Source: a virus
Virus record (IMG/VR): IMGVR_UViG_3300042121_000052
Location: 1-40,527 of that record
DNA: 40,527 nucleotides
Reading direction: 5' to 3' (one strand)
Below, in pieces: positions 348 to 38,728 of the stretch. Under the pieces are notes generated by a model. The model was not told where the DNA came from. It saw only the letters and a program-made list of their open reading frames with translations, and did no database searches. The translations under genes and the position numbers were made by a program. Numbering within the stretch: position 1 is the stretch's first letter; each line of letters opens with the position of its first letter.

Positions 348-662
348 GTGGACATATGGACGACGACGAATGACTCGGTTCAAGCGGCGAAGCAGGCCGG
401 GCAGATTACCGACGCGGACGAGGGCGCGGTTGCCGTGCTCTTGCAAATGGCCGAACGGCTGGACGATCCGGACTATCCGGTCATTGACGGCCGGTTCGAT
501 AACGTCACGCAGGCGCTGTATCTGAAGTACTGCGAACAGCTCGGGCTGACGCCGGCGGGCCGGAAGGCGCTGGACTCGAAGAAGGAGGCCGGTGGTGGCA
601 AGCTCGCGCAGCTCCGGGCGATCCAAGGCGGGGCCGGCGGGACGCGGAAGCGCTCCGGCTAG
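348..662 (+). CDS. terS: Terminase small subunit (P27-like)
   Basis: This 104-residue protein is expected to recognise the packaging site and load the large subunit onto phage DNA. Its middle (VIDGRFDNVTQALYLKYCEQL) and the following GLTPAGRKAL match the C-terminal 'GLTP' signature of P27-family small terminases, and the gene lies directly before the large terminase. GTG 348 is used; the 3' end overlaps the large-subunit start. The tail is basic (RKRSG). The assignment rests on the motif and gene order. A second P27-like protein is encoded at 36479-36880. Confidence 0.75.
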   Translation: MDIWTTTNDSVQAAKQAGQITDADEGAVAVLLQMAERLDDPDYPVIDGRFDNVTQALYLKYCEQLGLTPAGRKALDSKKEAGGGKLAQLRAIQGGAGGTRKRSG

Positions 663-2247
663 GCTCTACGGGGACGAGGTCCCGCGGATTTTCACGCCGC
701 CGCTGCGGCGCCTGACGCCGCGGACGTCGGCGGGGTTCGCGTGCATCGACTTCGCGGAGGGTGTCCTCGGCCTGGTGCTGTTCCCCTGGCAGAAGTGGTT
801 CCTGATCCATGCGCTGGAGCTGCTGCCGGACGGGTCTTTCCGTTTCCGGACGGTCGTGTTGCTAGTGGCGCGGCAGAACGGGAAAAGCACACTAGCGCAG
901 GTCCTCGCCCTGTTTTTCATGTATGTGCGGGCGGCGCGGCTGGTGATCGGCACGGCGCAGAACTTGGACATCGCGGAGGAGGTTTGGGCCGGCGCTGTTG
1001 AGATAGCGGAGGAATGCCCGGAGCTGGCCTCGGAAATCAAGCGGGTCAATCAGACGAACGGGAAAAAGTCCCTGGACCTGGTGCGGGGGGAACGGTACAA
1101 GGTGCAGACGGCGTCCCGGCGGGGCGGCCGCGGCCTGTCCGGGGACCTGATCCTGCTGGACGAGCTGCGGGAGCATCAAAGCTGGGACGCGTGGGGCGCG
1201 ATCACGAAAACGACGATGGCCCGGGCCCTGGCCCTGATCCTGGCCCTGTCGAATGCCGGGGACGCGTCCTCGCTGGTGCTGCGGTACCTGCGGAAAATGG
1301 CGCACGCCGCGCTCGGGGACCCGGACGGGATCAACGCGGACGGCCTCGGGCTGCTCGAGGTGGTCGAGGCGGTCCCGGAGGACCTGGTCGAGGACGCGCC
1401 GGACGCCGAGGACGATTCGCTGGGGATCTTCGAGTGGTCGGCGCCGCCGGGCTGCTCCCTGGATGACCGGGCCGGCTGGGCGGCGGCCAATCCGTCGCTG
1501 GGCTACGCGATCACGGAGCGGGCGATCGCCTCGGCACGCAAGACGGACCCCGAATGGGTGTTCCGGACGGAGGTCCTGTGCCAGTGGAACGACGGCACCA
1601 CGGAGGGACCGTTCCCCACGGGGTCCTGGGAGGCGGGCATCGATCCGGCCTCGGGCATCCCGGCGGCGGCACCGGTGACGTACTGCCTGGACACGGAACA
1701 CGACAGGACCCGGTCCTATATCGCGGCCGCGGGCCGCCGGGCAGACGGTGACGTGCACGTGGAAATCGTCGCGGCCCGGTACGGGGTCGAGTGGGCGCTG
1801 GACTGGTTCGCCGAACGCGCGGCCCCCGAGACCCCTTTGCGGGTGGTGGTGCAGGCGCGCGGCGCGCCGGTGTCGGCGCTGCTGCCGGAGCTGCAGGCGC
1901 TTGAGCACGTGGAAGTGGTCGAATGGGCCGGGCCGGCGCTGGGTGCCGGGTGCGGGAAGCTGTATGACGGGGTCAAGGCGCACCTGTGGGTGCCGGACCC
2001 GGTCGAGGGCGAGACGGAGGCGGACCGGCCGGTGCGGGTGTGGCATCTGCCGCAGCCGGTCCTGGACCTGGCGGCGGCGACGGCGGTGACGAAACCGCTG
2101 GGGGACGCGTGGTGCTGGAACCGGAAGGCGTCCCCGTACGGGGCGGCGGCGATCACGGCGGCGACGGGGGCGGCGTGGGACGTTCTGCTGCCGGTCGAGG
2201 CGGCGGCGGTGTCGGCGTATGAGGCCGGGGACCTGATGGTCGTCTGA
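592..2247 (+). CDS. terL: Terminase large subunit
   Basis: ATP-driven packaging motor and nuclease, about 551 residues, Terminase_1 type. The ATPase part carries a Walker A variant VARQNGKST, a Walker B LILLDEL followed by REH, and a coupling segment ALSNAG. The nuclease part contains the acidic strand YCLDTEHDRT and later conserved acidic positions. AAGGAGG at 582-588 supports GTG 592 or 595, giving a 68-71 base overlap with the small subunit; an Arg-rich lead of about 25 residues precedes the conserved LYGDEVPRIFTPP, so the exact start is uncertain. The stop is followed at once by the 8-bp repeat array. Confidence 0.93.
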   Translation: MVASSRSSGRSKAGPAGRGSAPARLYGDEVPRIFTPPLRRLTPRTSAGFACIDFAEGVLGLVLFPWQKWFLIHALELLPDGSFRFRTVVLLVARQNGKSTLAQVLALFFMYVRAARLVIGTAQNLDIAEEVWAGAVEIAEECPELASEIKRVNQTNGKKSLDLVRGERYKVQTASRRGGRGLSGDLILLDELREHQSWDAWGAITKTTMARALALILALSNAGDASSLVLRYLRKMAHAALGDPDGINADGLGLLEVVEAVPEDLVEDAPDAEDDSLGIFEWSAPPGCSLDDRAGWAAANPSLGYAITERAIASARKTDPEWVFRTEVLCQWNDGTTEGPFPTGSWEAGIDPASGIPAAAPVTYCLDTEHDRTRSYIAAAGRRADGDVHVEIVAARYGVEWALDWFAERAAPETPLRVVVQARGAPVSALLPELQALEHVEVVEWAGPALGAGCGKLYDGVKAHLWVPDPVEGETEADRPVRVWHLPQPVLDLAAATAVTKPLGDAWCWNRKASPYGAAAITAATGAAWDVLLPVEAAAVSAYEAGDLMVV

Positions 2248-2254
2248 GGATTTT

Positions 2255-2382
2255 ACGGGTTTACGTGGACGCGGGAACACGCTGACGCGTGGTTACGTGT
2301 TTGCGTGTGCACTTGGAAACGGGAAAACGTGGTGACGTGTTGACGGGATCACGTGGACACGTGGAAGGGGTTACGCGTGACG
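2255..2382 (+). repeat. 8-bp-phased repeat array; candidate distal partition site (parS)
   Basis: Starting at 2255 the sequence divides into consecutive 8-bp units with core RCGTG or close variants: ACGGGTTT, ACGTGGAC, GCGGGAAC, ACGCTGAC, GCGTGGTT, ACGTGTTT, GCGTGTGC, ACTTGGAA, ACGGGAAA, ACGTGGTG, ACGTGTTG, ACGGGATC, ACGTGGAC, ACGTGGAA, one degenerate unit (2367), then GCGTGACG. The phase never slips over 128 bp. Matching units flank parAB at 23516-23603 and 24502-24525. Phage parS sites made of direct 8-bp repeats bound by a ribbon-helix-helix ParB are known from mycobacteriophage RedRock. The array fills the gap between terL and the next gene, and the last units cover that gene's start. Confidence 0.75.
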
Positions 2383-2664
2383 GTGGAACTGTGGGTCCTC
2401 GCCGGGCTGGTGCTGCTGCTGGCCGCCGCCGGGGTCGCGGGCCGGTATGCGGCCGCGCACCTGGGCTGGCGGGTGCTGTACGCGCGGCGGGTGGTGGTGA
2501 ACCTGAAAACGGGCCGGGCCCTGGACGGGCTGCTGGTGCGGCGGGCCGGGGATCTGCTGTTCCTGCGGGAGGCGACGGCGCTGGAGCCGGGCGCGGAGCC
2601 GGTGCGGCTGGACGGGGACGCCGTCGTGGGCCGGGCCGATATCGACTTTATCCAGGCACTGTGA
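2377..2664 (+). CDS. Conserved small membrane protein between terminase and portal
   Basis: 95 residues: one N-terminal transmembrane helix (VLAGLVLLLAAAGVAGRY), then a soluble part with a small beta fold, NLKTGRALDGLLVRR and GRADIDFIQ. Proteins with a membrane anchor and a 'LKTGR..G.L..R..D' segment ending in 'DFIQ' sit between terminase and portal in many actinophages; their job is unknown. I chose GTG 2377 because GGAAGGGG (2363-2370) lies 6 bases upstream; GTG 2353 would begin inside the repeat array. Binding of a ParB-like protein to that array could block this ribosome site's transcript. Confidence 0.75.
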   Translation: MTVELWVLAGLVLLLAAAGVAGRYAAAHLGWRVLYARRVVVNLKTGRALDGLLVRRAGDLLFLREATALEPGAEPVRLDGDAVVGRADIDFIQAL

Positions 2665-2682: not shown

Positions 2683-4617
2683 GTGGCTTTCGGGGTTTCT
2701 GAGGGCACGATGCGGGGCCTTGCACGGCCCGCGTCCCTGCCGGCGTCCTCGCTGCGCCTGGCGGACGACTTCACGGCGGACTATGCGGCGCTGTGGCGCT
2801 CCCAGGGCGCGGTGCGGACCGTGGTGGATTTTCTGGGCCGCAACATTGCCTCCCTCGGGCTGCATCATTACCGGCGGGTCTCGGACACGGACCGGGAGCG
2901 GCTGGCCGGCTCGGACGTGGCCCGGCTGCTGGGCCGGCCCAATCCGGCGACGACGCGGTACCGGATGCTGGACGCGCTGGTGCGGGACCTGGGCATCTAT
3001 GACCGGGCGTACTGGCTGAAGGGCAAATCGGAGGGCGGCCGGTTCCTGCTGCGGCTGCCCCCGAAGATGGTCAAGCCGGTGGGTGAGGCGTGGATGTGGC
3101 CGGACGCGTTCGAGGTCGCGGGGAACAAGGGCCGGAAGGTGTTCCCGGCCGATCAGGTGGTGCACTTTAGGGGCTACGCGCCGGACGGTGACCTGGCCGG
3201 GTCCCCCCCTATCGAGGCGCTGCGCCGGGTCCTGTCGGAGGAATACGAGGCCGGCCGGATGCGGGAGCAGACTCTGCGCAACGGGGCCCGGGCGTCCGGG
3301 TACCTGGAACGGCCGGCGGCGGCGCCGGTCTGGTCGGAGACGGCGTCGGAGCGGTTCAAGCGGTCCTGGCGGTCCCAGTACACGGGCGGCGGGCCGGAGG
3401 CCGGCGGGACCCCGGTACTCGAGGACGGCATGAAATTCGTGTCGGCGTCCCAGACGGCCGAACAGCTCCAGTACATCGAGGCGCGCAAGCTGACCCGGGA
3501 AGAGGTCGCGGCGGCGTTCTTCATCCCGCCAACCATGGTCGGGATCATGGACTCGGCCACGTTCTCGAACATCAAAGAACAGCACAAACACCTGTACCAG
3601 GACACGCTCGGGCCGTGGCTGTCGATGATCGTGGACGAGCTGAATCTGCAACTGCTGGGCGATTTTGACGACGCCGAAGACACCTATCTGGAGTTCAACC
3701 TCGCGGAGAAACTGCGGGGGTCCTTCGAGGAACAGGCCGCGCAGATTCAGGCCAGTGTGGGCGGTCCGTGGATGACCCGGAACGAGGCGCGGGCGATGAA
3801 CAATCTGCCGGCGATCGAGGGCGGGGACGAGCTGATTGTGCCGCTGAACGTGGTCGAGGGCGGGCAGGCGTCCCCCCAGGACTCGGCCCCGGACACGGGC
3901 GCTCTGGCCGGGCCGCGCCGTGCACTGAAGGCGCTGGCGCGGGTCAAGGACGGCCCCGAGTTGTCCGACGCGGACCGGGCCGCGGCGGTGGAGCTGTTCG
4001 CGGCGTACTTCGAGCGGCAGGGCCGGACCGTGGTCCCGGCTGCGGCCGCCGGTGCTGACTGGTGGGACGGCGAACGGTGGAACCGGGAGCTGGCGGCGGA
4101 CCTGGAGGACTTCGCGCTGACCCTGACGGCGAAGGTGGGCAGGGCGCAGGCGGAGGCGCTGGGCTTCGAGCCGGGCGAGTACGACACGGAGCGGACCCTG
4201 GCGTTCCTGGCCGCGGTGGCCCAATCCCGGGCGGAGCTGGTGAATGCGGCCACGGAGCGGCAAATCGCGGAGGCGCTGGACGGGGCGGAGGACACGGACC
4301 GGGCCGCGGCGGCGGGGGCGGTGTTCGCGGCTGCGGTCGCGCAGCGTGCCGGGGCGGCCGGCGGTGCCCTGGCGGTGAACCTGGCCTCCTTCGCCTCGGT
4401 GGAGGCGGGCCGGAAACTGGCCGGGGACTCGCTGGTCAAGACGTGGCGGACGACGTCGGCCAACCCTCGGGCGGCGCACCGGGCGATGAACGGGGAAACG
4501 GTGCCCATCGGGGAGCTGTTCTCGAACGGGCTGAACTGGCCGGGGGACCCGGCGGAGGGCGCGGACGACGTGGCCGGCTGCGAATGCACGGTCGTCATAT
4601 CGCGCGCGGACAACTAG
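2683..4617 (+). CDS. Portal protein fused to a MuF-like minor head domain
   Basis: 644 residues. The first 400 or so form an HK97-type portal (Phage_portal): SQGAVRTVVDFLGRNIASL, IYDRAYWLKG, FRGYAPDGDLAGSPPIEALR, and the C-terminal clip/wing region ending IPPTMVGIMD and NLPAIEGGDEL. A further 200 residues end in a MuF signature: KTWRTTSANPRAAHRAMNGE, then LNWPGDPAEGADDVAGCECT. In most phages these are two genes; here one chain gives twelve portals each with a tethered MuF domain inside the head, which is known in other actinophages. GTG 2683; only a weak GGGGG ribosome site is seen. Confidence 0.92.
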   Translation: MAFGVSEGTMRGLARPASLPASSLRLADDFTADYAALWRSQGAVRTVVDFLGRNIASLGLHHYRRVSDTDRERLAGSDVARLLGRPNPATTRYRMLDALVRDLGIYDRAYWLKGKSEGGRFLLRLPPKMVKPVGEAWMWPDAFEVAGNKGRKVFPADQVVHFRGYAPDGDLAGSPPIEALRRVLSEEYEAGRMREQTLRNGARASGYLERPAAAPVWSETASERFKRSWRSQYTGGGPEAGGTPVLEDGMKFVSASQTAEQLQYIEARKLTREEVAAAFFIPPTMVGIMDSATFSNIKEQHKHLYQDTLGPWLSMIVDELNLQLLGDFDDAEDTYLEFNLAEKLRGSFEEQAAQIQASVGGPWMTRNEARAMNNLPAIEGGDELIVPLNVVEGGQASPQDSAPDTGALAGPRRALKALARVKDGPELSDADRAAAVELFAAYFERQGRTVVPAAAAGADWWDGERWNRELAADLEDFALTLTAKVGRAQAEALGFEPGEYDTERTLAFLAAVAQSRAELVNAATERQIAEALDGAEDTDRAAAAGAVFAAAVAQRAGAAGGALAVNLASFASVEAGRKLAGDSLVKTWRTTSANPRAAHRAMNGETVPIGELFSNGLNWPGDPAEGADDVAGCECTVVISRADN

Positions 4618-20811: not shown

Positions 20812-21008
20812 TCCCGGCCCCTCGGCCGGGGGCCGGGCTTGCCGGGGGTCCGGGTCGCCTGCCACGCGTCGATTGTCTCGGGCAGCCACCCTTGCCGGGT
20901 GCCGATCAGGGCGTCCGGGTCCGGCAGTTTGTACCGGTTCAAGGTGTCCGGTTTGACCCCTATGCGCTCGGCGAATTCGGGGCGGCTGAGATACCGTTTC
21001 ACGCTCAT
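20808..21008 (-). CDS. AlpA/MerR-like helix-turn-helix protein
   Basis: 66 residues. YLSRPEFAERIGVKPDTLNRYKLPDPDALIG then GWLPETIDAWQATRTPG is the standard winged HTH of AlpA/excisionase-like regulators ('eiA..lGv...ti..y....p.pd..ig...gW...tid.W...RpG'). Since the genome has no integrase, a regulator role is more likely than excision. It overlaps the Lsr2-like gene stop by 4 bases. A candidate target is the 16-bp palindrome at 23492-23507. Confidence 0.82.
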   Translation of the reverse strand: MSVKRYLSRPEFAERIGVKPDTLNRYKLPDPDALIGTRQGWLPETIDAWQATRTPGKPGPRPRGRE

Positions 21009-23485: not shown

Positions 23486-23516
23486 AAGTTTACACGGCTA
23501 GCCGTGTGATTGTCTA
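23486..23516 (-). promoter_or_regulatory. Promoter candidate with 16-bp palindromic operator
   Basis: On the minus strand TAGACA (-35) and TAAACT (-10) are 18 bases apart, and the spacer contains the perfect palindrome ACACGGCTAGCCGTGT (23492-23507). A dimeric regulator bound there would cover the promoter. It would drive the leftward genes 23443-21961. The -35 includes a TAGAC half-site (23512-23516) of the repressor operator family. Confidence 0.5.
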
Positions 23517-23603
23517 CTTATCTACGTACTTCCGTAACTACGTTTTTACGTGTTTAGTCGGTCACGTTCTCACGTATCCGCTTGGCTACGGACTTACGTA
23601 GCT
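23516..23603 (+). repeat. 8-bp-phased repeat array downstream of parB (parS-R-like)
   Basis: Consecutive 8-bp units from 23516: ACTTATCT, ACGTACTT, CCGTAACT, ACGTTTTT, ACGTGTTT, AGTCGGTC, ACGTTCTC, ACGTATCC, GCTTGGCT, ACGGACTT, ACGTAGCT. Eight-base phase is kept over 11 units; the last six lie within the 3' end of the ribbon-helix-helix gene. Position downstream of parB matches the parS-R site described for phage RedRock. The unit ACGTGTTT also occurs in the distal array at 2295. Confidence 0.72.
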
Positions 23604-23847
23604 CCGGGCTGTCGATCAGTTCCTCCACGAGGGCCCGGAACACTTCCACACTGGGGATCCTGGCCCGGCCGGTCGCGTCGGGCAGGGCCATGTCCTCCGG
23701 GAATGCCTTGACGGCCCGGTAGAGGTCCGGGGCAAGCTCCACGGTCATTTTCACGGGGTGGGAGCGTGGGGCCGGCGGCTTGGCCGGCTGCGCCGGTCGG
23801 GCCCCGAGTGCGGCGGCGCGGGCTTCGAGGCTGGTGGTCTTGCTCAT
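23554..23847 (-). CDS. parB: Ribbon-helix-helix ParB-like centromere-binding protein
   Basis: 97 residues. A disordered Ala/Pro-rich arm (residues 1-30) may stimulate ParA; then VKMTVELAPDLYRAVKAFPED, a beta strand plus helix typical of ribbon-helix-helix proteins, and SVEVFRALVEELIDSPEL. It is small and lacks the HTH of classic ParB, as in type Ib plasmid and actinophage partition systems. ATG 23847 overlaps the parA stop by 4 bases. It is expected to bind the 8-bp repeats at 23516-23603 (inside its own 3' end), 24502-24525 and perhaps 2255-2382. Confidence 0.83.
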   Translation of the reverse strand: MSKTTSLEARAAALGARPAQPAKPPAPRSHPVKMTVELAPDLYRAVKAFPEDMALPDATGRARIPSVEVFRALVEELIDSPELRKSVAKRIRENVTD

Positions 23848-24488
23848 GCGGTTTTCTCCAGTTCTTCGGCGGCGGACAGGTATCCGAACAGGTGCCCGGT
23901 CACGGGGGCGGTGTAGCTCTGGGCGAGCGGTTCGCGGCTGGGTATCTCGGCGGTGAGGACGTGCACGCCGGAGGATTCGAGGGCGCGGCGGATGACCTTG
24001 GTGCTCCGGGCGTTGCGCTTGGCCCGGTTGAACAGCACCCGGACCTCGGGCCCCGAGTCCCTGTGCGCGGCCGCCGTGGCGATCGCGGCCAGGTCGGGCG
24101 CGATGCTGTCCAGCTCCATCAGCGTGGGGGCCATGGGCACGACGACGGTGTCCGCGGCGCGCATGGCGGAGACGACGAGGCGGTGGGCTACGGGCTCGGC
24201 CTGGTCCCGGCCGGGCAGCTCATGGCTGGGCGGGGTGTCGATCACGACGACGTCGTAGCCTCGGCCGCGGGTGATGCCGGGCAGCTTGCGGTGCAGGGCC
24301 GGGTCCGGGAGCCACAGCACGGGCATGGGCCAGTCGGCTTGCTCGGCCCACTTGGTGGTTTTCTTCTGCGGGTCGGCGTCCACGACAAGGACGCTGAGGG
24401 ACATGGCGTGGAAGGCGTGGGCGAGGTAAGCAGTCGACGTCGTCTTGCCGCTGCCGCCCTTCAGGTTGGCCAGGGTGTACGTTTTCAT
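23844..24488 (-). CDS. parA: ParA partition ATPase
   Basis: 214 residues, small ParA/MinD type. Walker A KGGSGKTT (residues 10-17), Walker A' region VVDADPQKKTTKWAEQ, Walker B VVVIDTPPS, and late IPSREPLAQSY. No N-terminal HTH, so it is type Ib, where the small partner does autoregulation. With the ribbon-helix-helix gene and 8-bp repeats it makes a partition system that would keep the prophage as a low-copy plasmid. Its ATG at 24488 is preceded at 14-37 bases by three repeat units. Confidence 0.93.
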   Translation of the reverse strand: MKTYTLANLKGGSGKTTSTAYLAHAFHAMSLSVLVVDADPQKKTTKWAEQADWPMPVLWLPDPALHRKLPGITRGRGYDVVVIDTPPSHELPGRDQAEPVAHRLVVSAMRAADTVVVPMAPTLMELDSIAPDLAAIATAAAHRDSGPEVRVLFNRAKRNARSTKVIRRALESSGVHVLTAEIPSREPLAQSYTAPVTGHLFGYLSAAEELEKTA

Positions 24489-24501
24489 GCGGTCACCTTA
24501 T

Positions 24502-24525
24502 GCGTGTTTACGTGTTCACGGAACG
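24502..24525 (+). repeat. 8-bp repeat units upstream of parA (parS-L-like operator)
   Basis: GCGTGTTT, ACGTGTTC and ACGGAACG are consecutive 8-bp units starting 14 bases upstream of the parA start codon; GCGTGTCC at 24534 is in the same phase after one degenerate unit. In RedRock the upstream site mediates ParB repression of parAB. This copy has fewer units than the other two arrays, suiting an operator more than a centromere. Confidence 0.6.
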
Positions 24526-38353: not shown

Positions 38354-38728
38354 ATGTGGCCGCTGTATTACGACTGGGACGGGCAACCCATCACAATGGA
38401 ACAGTGGTCGGCGCTGCGCAAGGCCGGCGGCATTCACGTGGGCCTGACCCGGCTGGGGCAGCTCGGCGACGTCTCCACGGTCTGGCTTGGCCTGGACCAC
38501 GGGTACCCGGCACCGTGGGGCAACGACGAACGGCCGGTGATCTTCGAGACCATGGTTTTCGGCGGTCCCCTCGCCGGCGAAATGGTCCGCTACACGAGCC
38601 GGGAAGAGGCCAAGTTCGGGCACGACTTCATGGTCATGCGCCTAACGAACCTCGCCGGAGAACCGGAGCGGGCCCCGTCGCTGATCCATAACGGCGGGAA
38701 ACCGCGCGGCCGCGGATACCGGCGCTAG
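38354..38728 (+). CDS. Conserved phage protein, unknown
   Basis: 124 residues. PLYYDWDGQPITMEQWSAL, VSTVWLGLDHGYP, RPVIFETMVFGG and SREEAKFGHDFMV belong to a protein common in actinophages ('...yd..G.pi...eW..l......v..t......vSTVwlGldh.......p.ifEtmvfgg'). Function not known to me. ATG 38354. It converges with the minus-strand gene ending at 38725, with a 4-base overlap. Confidence 0.8.
   Translation: MWPLYYDWDGQPITMEQWSALRKAGGIHVGLTRLGQLGDVSTVWLGLDHGYPAPWGNDERPVIFETMVFGGPLAGEMVRYTSREEAKFGHDFMVMRLTNLAGEPERAPSLIHNGGKPRGRGYRR

What the first reader, a model, noticed from the sequence alone, without database searches (positions are those of the whole stretch)
2255..2382. Large 8-bp-phased repeat array, 21 kb from parAB: a third, distant partition site?
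About 15 consecutive 8-bp units (core RCGTG) run without phase slip between terL and the next gene. The same phasing and core occur downstream of parB (23516-23603) and upstream of parA (24502-24525). Published actinophage parABS systems (RedRock) have 8-bp direct repeats flanking parAB; a longer array inside the structural operon, almost opposite on the circle, is not something I know of. It could be the main centromere, could bridge DNA with the parAB sites, or could let the prophage's ParB repress late genes beyond the terminase.
Basis: partly seen in the sequence, partly recalled or inferred. Interest (0 to 1): 0.88.

Follow-up and report, generated by a model that had tools for sequence, protein, structure and literature searches.

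The report
Extra phage centromere inside structural genes
This virus of soil bacteria, which appears to live in its host as a free DNA circle, carries about 15 copies of an 8-letter DNA word between two particle-building genes; the word matches the docking sites of the virus's own DNA-segregation machinery 21 kb away, and unrelated cultured phages have the same kind of misplaced site, so its role can be tested.

Summary
The array is real: 16 consecutive 8-bp units (2253-2380), 13 of 13 RCGKG cores in one phase (at most 5 in 5,000 shuffles). It is the most 8-bp-periodic stretch of the genome; the parB-side array is second. A matrix built only from the parB-side units scores it far above everything else in the genome. 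So it is very probably a third binding array for this phage's ParB.

79 related terL loci lack it. Its position is not conserved, but the phenomenon recurs: G004 (ParA 55% identical) has a comparable array between protease and capsid genes, with conserved cores and diverging spacers; Gordonia A15 phages, with an unrelated ParB, have one between two minor tail genes. RedRock, LadyBird and Jeeves have none; relatives G001 and G005 have only par-flanking arrays.

Best explanation: an auxiliary centromere adding ParB-ParA contacts for a small ParB that probably cannot spread, placed where lysogens are silent. Main rival: ParB silencing of late genes. Binding and function are untested. New variant of a known kind; the cultured Gordonia phages make it testable.

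The parts
2253..2380 (.). Distal 8-bp-phased array, 16 units (one deviant unit over the RBS); proposed third parS / ParB-binding array in the terL-gp4 gap
23514..23609 (.). parB-side array, 12 units; overlaps the 3' end of parB (23554-23609) and runs 40 bp beyond; proposed parS
24500..24523 (.). parA-upstream array, 3 units, 12-35 bp upstream of the parA start codon; proposed ParB operator for autoregulation
23554..23847 (-). parB-like gene (97 aa); member of a family found next to ParA in related phages and contigs; AlphaFold2 model helical, weak resemblance to RHH proteins
23844..24488 (-). parA gene (214 aa, Walker-type ATPase without N-terminal HTH; nearest solved relatives ParF of TP228 and ParA 5u1g)
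592..2247 (+). terminase large subunit, upstream neighbour of the distal array
2377..2664 (+). gp4, small gene downstream of the array (relatives annotated 'RNA binding protein'); likely RBS GGAAGGGG at 2363-2370
   Evidence: start codon inferred from sequence and relatives
2683..4617 (+). portal protein gene (structural operon context)

Best explanation
The array is an additional centromere-type site (a third parS) of this phage's own type Ib ParABS system. ParB dimers bind its contiguous 8-bp units and form a complex like the one on the parAB-flanking arrays; the complex contacts nucleoid-bound ParA and helps segregate the extrachromosomal prophage. A small ParB of this kind probably cannot spread from its site, so the number of contiguous repeats sets how many ParB molecules the replicon carries. 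Adding an array in a gap of the structural operon, presumably silent in a lysogen, raises that number without disturbing coding, and the exact position matters little, so it turns over between phages. Shown: array, motif identity with the par-proximal arrays, recurrence, core conservation. Inferred: ParB binding, non-spreading, extrachromosomal lysogeny, segregation role.
For: Motif and phase shared with the par-proximal arrays, genome-wide and against an 803-kb real-sequence null (best 8-unit null 11.5; 43.3 at terL with the parB-side + parA-upstream matrix). The window and its complete parAB relatives lack a tyrosine integrase (PF00589) that all eight integrase-type relatives tested have. 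The array is absent from all 79 terL-gp4 gaps of relatives; in annotated ones the gap is 12-30 bp. G004 carries an analogous array between protease and major capsid genes, 17 kb from parAB, which a matrix from its own parA-upstream array finds (49.1; null maximum 21.4). G004 versus L029, 14 units: 19 substitutions, none at core positions A4/C5, 9 at column 2, no indel (adjacent empty columns P=0.019; hot column P=0.0003). Gordonia phage Remus: a parS-R-derived matrix ranks an array between minor tail genes 30 and 31 (47.9) with parS-R (47.1) and parS-L (38.2), next 6.9; the homologous gap is 84 bp against 13-16 bp in six other cluster A parABS phages. The lag-8 method recovers exactly the two published RedRock arrays. 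RHH-ParB of pSM19035 cannot spread and needs at least 4 contiguous repeats to activate ParA (PMC9499535); the parA-upstream array here has 3, the distal one about 15. Changing position argues for a position-independent role.
Against: No binding or stability data. G001 and G005 manage with par-flanking arrays only; RedRock-type cassettes work without a distal site (PMC7157519). All clear distal arrays lie in structural operons, which a silencing role would also predict. Matrix scores do not fully separate specificities between phages (cross-table). Lysogeny of this phage is unobserved, and only tyrosine integrases were searched for.
Confidence: 0.58

Rival explanations
1. ParB-dependent silencer: ParB bound to the array is a roadblock that stops leaky transcription of the late operon in the lysogen, analogous to the repressor-bound stoperators of cluster A phages or to omega repressing promoters on pSM19035.
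For: Three clear cases sit in intergenic gaps of structural operons. RHH-ParBs regulate promoters in pSM19035 (PMC9499535); A15 phages carry 21-22 intergenic stoperators (PMC5559632); parABS is expressed in lysogens (PMC6550527).
Against: Position within the operon differs (after terL; before capsid; between tail genes), so different genes would be protected; no sigma-70-like promoter or terminator in 2100-2700; relatives with parAB but no distal array exist.
Confidence: 0.24
2. Bridging or handcuffing site: ParB joins the distal and parAB arrays, looping the prophage or pairing copies to limit copy number or exclude a superinfecting relative.
For: Distal array nearly antipodal in the window and G004; handcuffing was raised for parS-linked copy-number changes in PMC7157519.
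Against: Remus has it only 4 kb from parAB; no direct evidence of looping.
Confidence: 0.1
3. The repeats serve something unrelated to ParB (packaging site, replication iterons, another regulator) or are a neutral relic.
For: Binding is undemonstrated.
Against: Motif and phase match the par arrays; relatives with the same terminase lack it, so it is not a packaging site; core conservation in G004/L029 argues against a neutral relic; 8-bp units are short for iterons (own knowledge).
Confidence: 0.08

Closest known systems
RedRock-type parABS of cluster A actinobacteriophages (parS-L and parS-R, 8 x 8 bp each; PMC7157519)
   Same: ParA plus small ParB, 8-bp direct repeats flanking parAB, no integrase found, extrachromosomal lifestyle presumed
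   Different: ParB is not detectably related (hhalign probability 1.9); ParA about 34% identical; RedRock, LadyBird and Jeeves have no distal array
Third parS of Miko and Rachaly (5 repeats just downstream of repA; PMC7157519)
   Same: an extra parS locus besides parS-L and parS-R
   Different: adjacent to the repA/parAB cassette, not in the structural operon; fewer repeats
Gordonia cluster A15 phages (Remus, Strosahl, Waits, Soups, KatherineG and others)
   Same: distal 8-bp array with the phage's own parS motif inserted in a normally tight gap of the structural operon
   Different: between minor tail genes, 4 kb from parAB; belongs to the cluster A parABS lineage; not described in the papers that could be read
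pSM19035 delta/omega system (six parS sites of 7-10 heptads at copS, delta and omega promoters; PMC9499535)
   Same: several repeat arrays on one replicon bound by a small non-spreading ParB with partition and regulatory roles
   Different: 7-bp heptads; sites overlap promoters of maintenance genes, not structural genes
Stoperators of cluster A phages (PMC5559632)
   Same: intergenic binding sites scattered over a prophage genome
   Different: single 13-bp sites bound by the immunity repressor, not repeat arrays bound by ParB

Membership tests
Type Ib ParABS partition system | ParA of the small Walker type without N-terminal HTH, ParF-like | tested here: met
   214 aa; best solved relatives ParF 4dzz (3.6e-17) and ParA 5u1g (4.5e-17); PHROG ParA-like
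Type Ib ParABS partition system | small DNA-binding partner gene directly downstream of parA | tested here: met
   97-aa gene overlapping the end of parA, conserved beside parA in related phages and contigs; DNA binding itself not tested
Type Ib ParABS partition system | partner has a ribbon-helix-helix fold | tested here: inconclusive
   no significant Pfam, NCBIfam or PDB sequence match; model pLDDT 80; three of six PDB fold hits are RHH proteins but E > 1
Type Ib ParABS partition system | repeat array(s) next to parAB | tested here: met
   23514-23609 and 24500-24523
Type Ib ParABS partition system | partner binds the arrays and the cassette stabilises a replicon | not testable with these tools
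   needs gel shift and plasmid-loss assay
RedRock-type actinophage parABS | ParB homologous to RedRock ParB | tested here: not met
   hhalign A3 vs A4 probability 1.9
RedRock-type actinophage parABS | 8-bp direct repeats flanking parAB in an integrase-less genome | tested here: met
   (PF00589 only)
parS site (the terL array itself) | same motif, unit length and phase as the par-proximal arrays | tested here: met
parS site (the terL array itself) | at least four contiguous repeats (pSM19035 requirement) | tested here: met
   about 15 units in sequence; the requirement itself is borrowed from PMC9499535
pSM19035 delta/omega family | 7-bp heptad repeats | tested here: not met
   period is 8

The most novel reading that the evidence does not exclude
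In extrachromosomal phages the partition protein is also a prophage-silencing protein: arrays of its site, evolved independently in several lineages and inserted into late-operon gaps, let ParB act both as centromere binder and as roadblock on virion genes, coupling segregation to lysogenic silence.
Probability: 0.18. Interest if true: 0.82.

Novelty: new variant of a known kind. Interest (0 to 1): 0.62.

Why it matters
How many parS arrays a replicon with a non-spreading ParB needs is stated as open in PMC9499535, and whether their place matters goes with it. Phages that add a full-size array far from parAB, in separate lineages and different gaps, are natural experiments on that question. 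The Gordonia A15 phages are isolated and grown in the laboratory, so the site can be removed or moved. If ParB also silences late genes there, partition and prophage silence would be linked.

Tried and rejected
(1) Distal hits in L113 (3334) and L116 (5128): they lie in a conserved reading frame (LIHSFTxxHKHC...), so withdrawn. (2) Pattern RCGKG(N3RCGKG)x4 over viral contigs: the matches listed are mostly microsatellites; one useful result, the Gordonia A15 contig. (3) Packaging-site or iteron reading: rejected because relatives with the same terminase lack the array. (4) Antipodal placement as a rule: not met in Remus. (5) First AlphaFold2 model of ParB was poor (pLDDT 61); a deeper alignment gave 80 but no significant fold match. 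(6) G002's short distal clusters (40096, 22031, 9003) exceed controls but have only 2-4 units; kept as weak. (7) Actinobacterial plasmids with related ParA (L265, L266) have arrays only near parA. (8) Dedrick et al. 2016 (PMC4998052) is not held, so whether it mentions the A15 distal site is unknown.

Full report
What is there. The window is an IMG/VR virus record of 40,527 bp whose terminase is about 81% identical to Arthrobacter phages such as Kepler and Coral. Between terL (ends 2247) and the next gene lie 16 consecutive 8-bp units, 2253-2380. The next gene most likely starts at GTG 2377 with GGAAGGGG at 2363-2370 as its ribosome-binding site, which coincides with the one strongly deviant unit. 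All 13 RCGKG cores are in one phase; in 5,000 dinucleotide shuffles no phase holds more than 5. In a lag-8 scan this stretch ranks first in the genome and the parB-side array second.

Same motif as the par arrays. A matrix from the 12 parB-side units alone gives 10-unit phased sums of 82.4 (itself), 38.9 (terL array), then -7.9. In 803 kb of related sequence the best 8-unit sum is 11.5, against 43.3 at terL with a matrix that also uses the three parA-upstream units. The parA-upstream array (24500-24523) has three units just upstream of the start codon, which suits autoregulation. The parB-side array overlaps the 3' end of parB; G004 shows a similar coding overlap.

The genes. ParA is of the small ParF type. 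The 97-aa partner belongs to a family present beside ParA in related phages and contigs but matches nothing significantly in Pfam, NCBIfam or PDB sequences. A model with pLDDT 80 is helical, and its nearest solved folds include ribbon-helix-helix proteins, not significantly. It is not detectably related to RedRock-type ParB.

Relatives. Eight integrase-type relatives have a tyrosine integrase and no ParA match; the window, G001, G002, G004 and G005 have ParA and no tyrosine integrase. None of 79 related terL loci has an array in the terL-gp4 gap; the gap is 12-30 bp in the annotated ones. The array is therefore peculiar to this phage at this place. But G004 has a comparable array between its protease and major capsid genes, 17 kb from parAB, and a matrix from G004's own parA-upstream array finds it (49.1; null maximum 21.4). 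A near relative, L029, has the same array: over 14 units there are 19 substitutions, none at core positions 4 and 5, nine at column 2, and no indel. The sample is small (adjacent empty columns anywhere P=0.019; a column as hot P=0.0003), but it is what selection on a phased binding core predicts. G001 and G005, and the partial contigs L007 and L008, have long arrays next to parAB and none detected elsewhere. G002 has only short clusters.

Independent recurrence. Gordonia A15 phages (26 near-identical records) have an array of the phage's own motif between minor tail genes 30 and 31 (Remus 20847-20925), about 4 kb from parAB. A matrix from parS-R ranks it 47.9; the best non-par site is 6.9. The homologous gap is 84 bp against 13-16 bp in RedRock, LadyBird, CRB1, Jeeves, Steamy and Gail. 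The lag-8 scan recovers exactly the two published RedRock arrays and nothing distal, which serves as positive control; it finds none in the late regions of CRB1, Steamy and Gail. The cluster A ParB family being unrelated makes independent origin likely (inference).

Mechanism. Established for pSM19035: RHH-ParBs do not spread and need at least four contiguous repeats to activate ParA (PMC9499535). By analogy the three-unit site at parA is an operator and the 12- and 15-unit arrays are centromeres. An extra array raises the number of ParB molecules per replicon. Structural operons are, by the lysogen expression data for cluster A (PMC6550527), silent in lysogens, so an array there would not be swept by RNA polymerase. 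That the position changes between phages fits a position-independent role better than repression of particular genes. Silencing remains a real rival because all clear distal arrays are in structural operons.

Limits. Binding, lysogeny and segregation are untested; other recombinases were not searched for; cross-specificity between phages is only partly separated by the matrices; the key 2016 paper on actinophage parABS is not held, so novelty of the Gordonia site is provisional.

Noticed in passing
L387 20847-20925 (Gordonia phage Remus) and 25 further A15 records: Third 8-bp array with the parS motif between minor tail genes 30 and 31; no feature is annotated there.
   Followed up: yes
window 23554-23609; L101 15759-15823: The parB-side array runs into the 3' coding end of parB in the window and in G004, so codons and 8-bp phase are accommodated together.
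   Followed up: partly
L026 5200-6198 versus L029 4848-5843: Near-identical DNA left of the distal array, diverged capsid gene (about 8%) to its right: a recombination boundary close to the array.
   Followed up: partly
L007 6010-6290; L104 3284-3580 (G005); L109 3562-3810; L097 17011-17240 (G001): Very long 8-bp arrays (about 200-300 bp) downstream of parB in relatives.
   Followed up: partly
L265 12912 and 13957; L266 6090 and 6700: Actinobacterial plasmids (Mycetocola, Brachybacterium) with related ParA also have 8-bp-phased arrays beside parA.
   Followed up: no
window 38366-38704; L099 5819-6199; L104 5257-5580; L097 15656-15964; L101 13895-14194: A small conserved gene (motif FETMxFGGPLDG) lies near parAB in the parAB relatives; in the window it is far away, and it is not detected in the integrase phages L001-L003.
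   Followed up: partly
L113 3334-3420; L116 5128-5200: Strong 8-bp periodicity inside a conserved reading frame, in phages that carry a distant ParAB; whether it is coding only or also an embedded site is unclear.
   Followed up: partly
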